Part shown: one piece after another, positions 38,269-44,130 of the stretch
Numbering within the stretch: position 1 is the first letter of the stretch
Layout: each line of letters starts with the position of its first letter
Assembly (NCBI GenBank): GCA_949297715.1
Contig: CASFTJ010000013.1
Coordinates: forward strand, 1-44,130
DNA: 44,130 nt
Direction of reading: 5' to 3'
Source: an uncultured bacterium
Lineage (GTDB): Bacteria; Cyanobacteriota; Vampirovibrionia; Gastranaerophilales; Gastranaerophilaceae
Made by a program: the position numbers and the translations under genes
Notes under the pieces: model-generated
Database searches by the model: none
Told to the model about the DNA's origin: nothing
The model's input: only the letters and a program-made list of their open reading frames with translations

Positions 38269-38343
38269 GCGGGGGTAATTCAGTGGTAGAATGCCTCCTT
38301 GCCAAGGAGGATGTCGCGAGTTCGAGCCTCGTCTCCCGCTCCA
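38269..38343 (+). tRNA. tRNA-Gly (anticodon GCC)
   Basis: Complete cloverleaf: acceptor GCGGGGG/CTCCCGC, anticodon loop TTGCCAA, T-arm GCGAG TTCGAGC CTCGT, discriminator T and encoded CCA. A terminator follows at 38350. Its 3' part from T-loop position 58 is duplicated 190 bases downstream. Confidence 0.97.
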
Positions 38344-38534
38344 TAAAGAAGAGTCTGAATTTCAGGCTCTTTTTTATTTTATAGGGAGATTTTGACGAGA
38401 ACTCGCTTTTTCGAGTTCGGCGACCTGTGAGCAGAGGGCGAAGGCTTGCCTGCGTATGGATTAAACCATTTAAGCAGGCAACCGAAGACCCGTTTAATGC
38501 GAGCAGGTCAAGACAGCCTCGTCTCCCGCTCCAT
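38325..38534 (+). repeat. tRNA-Gly tail duplication enclosing a hairpin element
   Basis: The 20 bases 38325-38344 (T-loop A58 through CCA plus T) recur exactly at 38515-38534. Between them lie the tRNA terminator, a hairpin GAACTCG/CGAGTTC (38399-38418) ending in GTTCG, and a 95-base insert (38420-38514). The insert has GTGAGCAGAGG, a central hairpin TTGCCTGC/GCAGGCAA (38446-38481) and ends GCGAGCAGGTCAAGAC. The same framework is found after tRNA-Tyr and at the window start. No gene is encoded. It looks like a short mobile or structured element fused to the T-loop. Confidence 0.75.
38350..38377 (+). terminator. Terminator of tRNA-Gly
   Basis: Hairpin AGAGTCTG / CAGGCTCT (one G-T pair) followed by a T run, starting seven bases after the CCA end. 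Confidence 0.85.
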
Positions 38535-38771
38535 TTAAAACATAAGTCCAGTAAGCCTTTTGGGAAACTGGATTATTTTTTTATTTTGGCTTTTTTCATT
38601 TATGCTCATATTTTGCTCATATTTTTCTGAAAAAATATTCCCGATTTGTAATGTCGCTTTTTTAACCATGCCTGCACCCTCAAATAAATCAATACAGTCA
38701 TTTAAATTTCCGTTTAAAAATTTTTGTATTTTTATATCAAATTTTTCACGTAATTTTTTATCAAAATACTG
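38535..38771 (-). pseudogene. Possible 5'-truncated gene remnant
   Basis: On the leftward strand a frame is open for about 78 codons with coding-like composition (KKLREKFDIKIQKFLNGNLN, DCIDLFEGAGMVKKATLQIG, ending KKIIQFPKRLTGLMF). Its stop codon abuts the duplicated tRNA-Gly tail. There is no start codon at its left part except an internal ATG (38669, giving 44 residues). It may be the C-terminal remnant of a lost gene, possibly from the agent that made the tail duplication. No family is recognised. Alternatively it is chance; bases 38547-38580 also form a terminator-like hairpin on the + strand. Confidence 0.35.
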
Positions 38772-38830
38772 TTAACTTAAAAATCAATGCACTTATAAGA
38801 ATTTTATGATATAATAAAAACGGAGTTATT

Positions 38831-43361: not shown

Positions 43362-43397
43362 TTTTTTCTGAAAATTTAATAATCAAAGTTAATAAAA

Positions 43398-43648
43398 TTT
43401 GAGCCTTTGTGGCAAGGACTCCGCGCAGTTAACTGAGTGTTAACGGAGTGGAGGGTGAGTAGCAGAACTCCATTGGTACATTTGTTCAAAACAATTTGAG
43501 CCTTTGTGGCAAGGACTCCGCGCAGTTAACTGAGTGTTAACGGAGTGGAGGGTGGGTGTGGCAAGGACTCCGCGCAGTTAACTGAGTGTTAACGGAGTGG
43601 AGGGTGGGTGGCAGAACTCCATTGGTACATTTGTTCAAAACAATTTGA
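43398..43648 (+). repeat. Tandem palindromic repeats carrying tRNA-Thr 5' ends
   Basis: A unit of about 97 bases is repeated. It begins GCCTTTGTGGC (the exact first 11 bases of the following tRNA-Thr), continues with a core of about 50 bases containing a hairpin ACTCC..GTTAAC / GTTAAC GGAGT, then GCAGAACTCCATTGGTA and TTGTTCAAAACAA. The core occurs three times (at about 43410, 43507 and 43559); the second unit is cut short by 52 bases. The part after the core resembles the anticodon arm and T-loop of tRNA-Thr(GGT), so the units look like degenerate tRNA-Thr copies with an insert in the D-arm. No gene is found here. Confidence 0.7.
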
Positions 43649-43720
43649 GCCTTTGTGGCGCAGGGGTAGCGCACTCCCTTGGTAAGGGAGAGGCCACGGG
43701 TTCAAATCCCGTCAAAGGCA
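43649..43720 (+). tRNA. tRNA-Thr (anticodon GGT)
   Basis: Acceptor GCCTTTG/CAAAGGC, D-arm GCGC/GCGC, anticodon loop TTGGTAA, T-arm ACGGG TTCAAAT CCCGT, discriminator A. No encoded CCA. Preceded by tandem repeats that copy its 5' end. No promoter of its own is obvious, so it may depend on read-through from tRNA-Thr(TGT). Confidence 0.96.

Positions 43721-43737: not shown

Positions 43738-44130
<393 letters not shown>

What the first reader, a model, noticed from the sequence alone, without database searches (positions are those of the whole stretch)
38325..38534. tRNA-Gly tail duplicated exactly from T-loop nucleotide 58, enclosing a 95-bp insert
Seen directly: 38325-38344 equals 38515-38534. 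The copied block starts at A58 of the T-loop and ends one base past CCA. The second copy is preceded by an insert (38420-38514) that follows another GTTCG, so the downstream arrangement is a T-arm split between positions 57 and 58. The same break and the same 20-base length occur after tRNA-Tyr. Integrases often use the tRNA 3' end as attB, but an element of under 200 bases with no genes is not a normal integrated element. It could be a non-autonomous mini-element, a remnant of excision, or an RNA-derived insertion.
Basis: partly seen in the sequence, partly recalled or inferred. Interest (0 to 1): 0.85.

Follow-up and report, generated by a model that had tools for sequence, protein, structure and literature searches.

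The report
Gene-less cassettes copying tRNA tails
Behind many tRNA genes of the gut bacteria Gastranaerophilales sit small gene-less DNA cassettes that end in an exact copy of that tRNA's tail and carry a mirror copy of its T-arm; they share a blueprint with the old, unexplained RtT repeats of E. coli, so an old oddity becomes a testable, apparently mobile system found in two distant phyla.

Summary
The 20-nt tail of tRNA-Gly (from A58) recurs 190 bp downstream behind a 95-nt insert; the same holds for tRNA-Tyr. The insert is a covarying hairpin element (97.6% of stem cells paired; 214 compensatory cells against 76 in shuffles), found in 161 of 192 sampled genomes of the order and in none listed outside it. 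Of 144 cores, 88 run into a tRNA tail (random positions 3/2000). Own genome: 8 of 34 tRNAs scanned have a tail copy. Sister genomes give occupied/empty pairs, decay and reshuffled arrays, so these are insertions, not fixed parts. Each unit also holds an inverted copy of its own tRNA's T-arm/tail whose dinucleotide opposite G57-A58, the insertion point, is GA rather than TC (GA best of 16; 44 vs 5). The same plan occurs in E. coli RtT repeats behind tyrV and proK, although Rfam's RtT model does not match here. Best reading: a gene-less, RtT-like tRNA-tail cassette family, inserted at the T-loop through a hairpin/guide intermediate, multiplying by tail-to-tail recombination. The enzyme is unknown; neither Y1/RAYT transposase nor reverse transcriptase tracks it.

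The parts
38269..38343 (+). tRNA-Gly(GCC), intact host gene
   Evidence: ARAGORN; Rfam tRNA 63.5 bits
38325..38344 (+). tail copy 1 (A58 to one base past CCA)
   Evidence: direct repeat D4
38345..38377 (+). terminator-like hairpin of the tRNA; the same hairpin follows the empty tRNA-Gly(GCC) in sister genomes
   Evidence: sequence; fold; orthologues
38384..38406 (+). inverted copy (anti-tail / anti-T-arm, 'guide') GGGAGATTTTGACGAGAACTCGC, complementary to the tRNA-Gly T-arm and acceptor 3' strand; eroded in this copy
   Evidence: fold; family-wide test
38400..38419 (+). small hairpin AACTCG..CGAGTT followed by GTTCG, the T-arm 5' copy
38420..38514 (+). structured core (type I), 95 nt, ending GCGAGC-AGGT-CAAGAC
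   Evidence: CM hit 38409-38515, 92.8 bits, E 1.7e-22; covariation
38515..38534 (+). tail copy 2
43738..43823 (+). tRNA-Tyr(GTA), second host gene in the window
43805..43824 (+). Tyr tail copy 1
43861..43883 (+). Tyr guide GCAGGGGTGAGATGAGAAACACC = reverse complement of T-arm/tail with GA opposite 57-58
   Evidence: score 17.0, the joint best of 61
43896..43985 (+). type I core of the Tyr unit
   Evidence: CM hit 43885-43986, 86.5 bits
43986..44005 (+). Tyr tail copy 2
44006..44130 (+). second Tyr unit, cut by the contig end (appears to continue at the end of contig C20)
1..90 (+). right part of another unit: core end 1-74, then tail of tRNA-Arg(CCT) 75-90

Best explanation
It is one member of an RtT-like family of gene-less, hairpin-forming cassettes that live behind tRNA genes. 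A cassette reads: tRNA tail from A58, a terminator, an inverted copy of that tRNA's T-arm/tail carrying GA opposite G57-A58, a small hairpin ending GTTCR, a structured core, then the next A58 tail. Shown: the anatomy, the A58 boundary in several unrelated core families, covariation of the core, occupied versus empty tRNAs in sister species, tandem and reshuffled arrays, decay, and bare cores nested in other hairpins. Inferred: (1) insertion occurs between G57 and A58 in the T-loop, through a single-stranded RNA or DNA in which the inverted copy pairs with the T-arm around a tandem G.A mismatch; (2) a functional tRNA 3' end is kept because the tail is copied, as a target duplication or by exchange within the tail; (3) units then multiply, are lost and swap by recombination between identical tails; (4) the enzyme is supplied in trans and is unknown. 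In the window the result looks harmless: tRNA-Gly and tRNA-Tyr stay intact and each gains one or more downstream cassettes.
For: A58 tail copies: 82/210 tRNAs in the loci and 8/34 in the own genome; spacing peak 178-193; CAAGAC just before 64/100 copies. Tail identity with the nearest tRNA is high: 14 or more of 16 in 60% (null 0.4%), most others differ by a 1-nt shift or a 55/56 break. Inverted T-arm copy with GA. Core covariation. Occupied/empty: Tyr G008 versus G004/G006 with the same downstream gene, tail and native trailer duplicated for 25 nt; Gly(GCC) G000 versus G010/G009. Decay in G012 and G002. Arrays of different order at tRNA-Gly(TCC). Clean insertion of a 62-nt core inside another core, L050 versus L052. 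Other insert families with the same A58 boundary, several with a T-arm complement. Same plan in E. coli tyrV and proK.
Against: No enzyme identified; no movement seen within one strain, only between species. Compensatory changes and E. coli's annotated rtT RNA could mean a cellular RNA function instead. Tail exchange by ordinary homologous recombination could explain much of the array behaviour. The guide is eroded in some units (including the window's Gly unit), and 12 of 61 comparisons of GA with TC are ties.
Confidence: 0.5

Rival explanations
1. A functional RNA, not a mobile element: the unit is a read-through, processed sRNA as described for E. coli rtT, and its T-arm complement acts on tRNA or its precursor, for example as a sponge or regulator of tRNA supply; tail copies are kept for processing.
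For: Strong covariation; rtT RNA is annotated in E. coli and reported as released from tRNA operon transcripts with an effect on the stringent response (PMC4986893); more G.U than A.C in stems (22 vs 11 outside one fixed G.U).
Against: A terminator-like hairpin separates tRNA and unit; empty and decayed orthologues in the same genus; copy number and position differ widely between species; several unrelated core families share the position; bare cores occur away from tRNAs.
Confidence: 0.25
2. Att-site debris: minimal remnants of integrative elements that use the tRNA T-loop/3' end as attB through a tyrosine recombinase.
For: Tail identity blocks are typical of att sites; this tRNA-Gly seems a real hotspot, with integrase-like sequence after several orthologues (inspection only); cores occur in partial tRNA-Asp and tRNA-Lys fragments that look like attR (L031, L054, L020).
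Against: Uniform unit length, a conserved internal T-arm palindrome and a structured core do not arise from random deletion of large elements; no integrase gene in a unit; duplication can extend far beyond the tRNA (up to 94 nt).
Confidence: 0.12
3. Tandem duplication of tRNA 3' regions by slippage or unequal crossing-over, with an independently mobile palindrome (RPE/REP/ERIC-like) landing in the T-loop of the non-functional copy.
For: Bare cores insert in hairpins on their own (L050/L052; L055); duplications of 56-94 nt exist; arrays end in partial units.
Against: Different insert families share the A58 boundary and the inverted copy; the GA dinucleotide in the inverted copy is not explained by plain duplication.
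Confidence: 0.13

Closest known systems
RtT repeats of E. coli (178-bp repeats of tyrT/tyrV; Rfam RF00391; also proK and argVYZQ)
   Same: Tail copies start at A58; unit length 168-178 at tyrV and proK (133-135 at the arg cluster); order tail, trailer or terminator, inverted T-arm copy with GA (GGGGAAGGATGAGAA in tyrV, GAGGATGAGAACCTCC in proK), GGTTCG, structured body, A58; tandem array with a partial last unit.
   Different: Body sequence differs (E. coli ends GAGT|A58, here CAAGAC|A58); the Rfam RtT model does not match the units tested; here at least 26 anticodons are used, with several body families.
Rickettsia palindromic elements, REP/BIME, ERIC (from general knowledge)
   Same: Short gene-less hairpin elements with compensatory changes, able to insert into genes or other repeats.
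   Different: None of these is known to me to start at A58 of tRNAs or to carry a complementary copy of its target; RAYT (Y1) genes do not track the cores.
IS110 bridge RNA (PMC11208160)
   Same: A non-coding RNA complementary to both sides of the insertion point.
   Different: No IS110-type recombinase was looked for or seen in a unit; here the complement faces the insertion dinucleotide with a mismatch (GA); mechanism unproven.
Integrative elements at tRNA 3' ends
   Same: tRNA tail as identity block; the tRNA stays functional.
   Different: Under 200 bp, no integrase, internal palindrome, variable duplication length.

Membership tests
RtT (Rfam RF00391 / E. coli tyrT repeats) | copies of the host tRNA tail from A58 flank each unit | tested here: met
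   E. coli
RtT (Rfam RF00391 / E. coli tyrT repeats) | unit of about 178 bp, often tandem | tested here: met
   spacing peak 178-193; 16 of 82 tRNAs with copies have two or more
RtT (Rfam RF00391 / E. coli tyrT repeats) | inverted T-arm copy with GA opposite 57-58 (feature recognised here) | tested here: met
   E. coli tyrV 17.5 (GA) vs 12.5 (true complement), proK 16 vs 11; here 44 vs 5 loci
RtT (Rfam RF00391 / E. coli tyrT repeats) | match to the Rfam covariance model | tested here: not met
   no RtT hit in the window at gathering nor up to E=1 in L004, L005, L278, L048, L302, while E. coli L333 scores 134-138 bits
RtT (Rfam RF00391 / E. coli tyrT repeats) | stable processed transcript | not testable with these tools
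   no RNA data
REP/RAYT system | Y1/RAYT transposase present and linked | tested here: not met
   none in the own genome; over the cut-off in 60/192 genomes of the order; 3 of 20 Y1 regions examined have a core nearby, one of them with its own different palindrome
Retroelement | reverse transcriptase tracks the element | tested here: not met
   81/192 genomes over the cut-off; core-rich G002, G021, G042, G065 have none; the own genome has one RT on another contig
Integrative element with tRNA att site | own integrase between the tail copies | tested here: not met
   no room for a gene: about 170 nt between copies
Integron cassette (attC) | GTTRRRY core site at the cassette end | tested here: not met
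   by inspection units end CAAGAC|A, without GTTRRRY at the junction
IS110 bridge RNA element | IS110 recombinase using the RNA | not tested

The most novel reading that the evidence does not exclude
The inverted T-arm copy is a true guide: an RNA (or folded single strand) made from the unit pairs with its tRNA gene across the T-loop and directs insertion at the G57|A58 step marked by a tandem G.A mismatch. RtT repeats in Proteobacteria and these cassettes in Gastranaerophilales would then be two branches of an undescribed, self-targeting, nucleic-acid-guided insertion system specialised on tRNA genes.
Probability: 0.15. Interest if true: 0.92.

Novelty: new variant of a known kind. Interest (0 to 1): 0.62.

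Why it matters
RtT repeats have been an unexplained curiosity of E. coli for decades (my knowledge). Finding the same blueprint, with a tRNA-specific mirror copy and a fixed mismatch at the insertion point, in a distant phylum suggests it is a general kind of element and gives concrete predictions (guide, insertion point, empty sites). It also explains assembly breaks at tRNA genes and tail duplications that could be mistaken for att sites.

Tried and rejected
Rfam: no known family in the window except tRNA, and no RtT hit here up to E=1. Phage collection: no match to the Tyr units; IMG/VR: one contig. RAYT/Y1 as mobiliser: absent from the own genome; the closest case (L192) carries its own different REP. 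Reverse transcriptase: does not track. Literature: nothing found on such repeats in Gastranaerophilales; no palindromic-element paper of direct relevance; Bosl and Kersten 1991 is not held. Exact duplication length was considered as a measure of target duplication but is blurred by arrays and decay. The T-arm 5' copy was first read as tRNA-derived; in many units only GTTC(G) is kept, so it may be an element feature.

Full report
Check of the observation. The 20 bases 38325-38344 recur exactly at 38515-38534. The first copy is the 3' part of tRNA-Gly(GCC), 38269-38343, beginning at A58. The insert 38420-38514 follows GTTCG and ends in CAAGAC. The same is seen after tRNA-Tyr, where 43805-43824 recurs at 43986-44005 and a second unit is cut by the contig end. 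The motif GCGAGCN{2,6}CAAGAC occurs three times in the window where 0.01 is expected. The third copy, at the window start, ends in the tail of tRNA-Arg(CCT); that tRNA lies at the edge of another contig. Both ends of this 44-kb contig therefore look like assembly breaks inside such repeats.

Where it occurs. The own genome (2.02 Mb, 34 contigs) has 13 matches to a covariance model of the core. Within the order 161 of 192 genomes have the core. A draw of 292 genomes from the phylum gave 117 positive, and every positive genome listed was of the same order.

The core is structured. In 126 aligned cores 13 stem pairs are 97.6% paired. There are 214 cells with changes on both sides against 76 in shuffles (0 of 500 shuffles reach it), and sliding the partners destroys the signal. 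The window's unit folds far better than shuffles (z -7.25). By inspection the outer stem also contains GA facing GA (for example GGGAGCGAGC facing GCGAGCGACC), which some copies replace by Watson-Crick pairs (GGCCTGCGAGC facing GCGAGCAGGCC).

The link to tRNAs. Of 144 cores with both ends recognised, 77 have an intact tRNA within 400 nt upstream on the same strand, over 26 anticodons, and the bases after the core are that tRNA's tail (14 or more of 16 in 60%; tails of other tRNAs 0.4%; most of the rest differ by a one-base shift or a break at 55/56). In total 88 of 144 run into a tRNA tail against 3 of 2000 random positions. A scan that starts from the tRNA and knows nothing of the core finds a tail copy behind 8 of 34 own-genome tRNAs scanned and 82 of 210 in all loci (the latter sample is enriched for cores), spacing peaked at 178-193. 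Some copies follow other, unrelated structured inserts (ACACAGTG|A58 in L073, L092, L200; L265, L295, L302), so the A58 boundary belongs to the mechanism or the site and not to one core.

The inverted copy. Between terminator and core lies a reverse complement of the host tRNA's own T-arm and tail. It scores above the 99th percentile of other tRNAs in 16 of 62 loci. When the dinucleotide opposite positions 57-58 is varied, GA is the best of all 16 and beats the true complement TC in 44 loci against 5; GAYGAGAA is present in 22 of 61 loci and GAYTCGAA in none. Pairing of this stretch with the T-arm would thus give a tandem G.A mismatch exactly at the insertion point. The window's Tyr unit is among the two best examples (GCAGGGGTGAGATGAGAAACACC); the Gly unit is eroded.

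Evidence for insertion and turnover. In the genus, tRNA-Tyr is empty in G004 and G006 but occupied in G008 in front of the same downstream gene, with a 25-nt exact duplication that begins at A58 and includes the native trailer; G002 has the same insertion with a decayed second tail. tRNA-Gly(GCC) is empty in G010 and G009, occupied here and decayed in G012. At tRNA-Gly(TCC) six sister genomes show different orders and numbers of units with different terminators. A bare 62-nt core sits cleanly inside another core in L050 compared with L052. Exact duplications from A58 range from 14 to 94 nt.

What moves it. Y1/RAYT transposases are over the cut-off in 60 of 192 genomes and not in the own genome; 3 of 20 Y1 regions examined have a core nearby, and in the clearest one (L192) the gene has its own different palindrome. 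Reverse transcriptases occur in 81 of 192, and core-rich genomes exist without one. No enzyme can be named.

Comparison with the known. E. coli K-12 tyrV carries the RtT repeats. Fetched and tested here, their tail copies start at A58, the unit is 178 bp, and each contains GGGGAAGGATGAGAAGCTTC, the complement of the tRNA-Tyr T-arm/tail with GA at the same place (score 17.5 against 12.5 for the true complement), followed by GGTTCG and a structured body. proK has the same (168 bp, GAGGATGAGAACCTCC), and argVYZQ has related tail copies. The units here are not matched by the Rfam RtT model. So they work like RtT and share its plan, but are not members of the curated family. The literature describes RtT RNAs as released from tRNA operon transcripts with an effect on the stringent response (PMC4986893). 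Whether the inverted T-arm copy in RtT was described earlier could not be checked.

Verdict. A real, widespread, gene-less cassette family; a new variant of a known kind. The insertion mechanism is inferred: hairpin or guide pairing at G57|A58, tail copying, then recombination between tails. Rival readings are a functional RNA, att debris, or plain tandem duplication plus a mobile palindrome.

Noticed in passing
window 43391-43659: Upstream of tRNA-Thr(GGT) a ~97-nt repeat (GGACTCCGCGCAGTTAACTGAGTGTTAACGGAGTGGAGGG, three copies, only here in the genome) carries copies of the first 11 bases of that tRNA (GCCTTTGTGGC): a mirror-image case at a tRNA 5' end.
   Followed up: partly
window 38535-38790: After the second Gly tail lies a terminator and TGCTCATATTTTGCTCATATTTT, resembling the sequence before an integrase-like end next to tRNA-Gly in G013 (L250): the second tail may have served as attB for an integrative element.
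   Followed up: no
L031, L054, L020 and own genome C8:54441 (L183): Cores behind 3'-half tRNA-Asp or tRNA-Lys fragments that begin at the anticodon loop, looking like attR of larger elements.
   Followed up: no
L013, L015, L025, L032, L184, L278: A second core type (..GAGCGTGGAGCAAATCCAAGAC|A58) shares the 5' domain GAGAAC-hairpin-GTTCG and the A58 boundary but has a different body.
   Followed up: partly
L073, L092, L200, L265, L295, L302: Further unrelated insert families at A58, some with their own T-arm complement (L200 CGACGGGACTAAACCC, L302 GGAACTTGAACC).
   Followed up: partly
L192 1430-2070: A RAYT-like Y1 gene behind a tRNA-Leu unit, with its own REP-like palindrome GTCGGATTTACTAATCCGAC nearby.
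   Followed up: partly
L334/L335 (E. coli proK): The array ends in a partial unit that repeats tail, terminator, inverted T-arm copy and GGTTCGACTCGA and then diverges; NC_000913.3 carries no RtT annotation at proK.
   Followed up: partly
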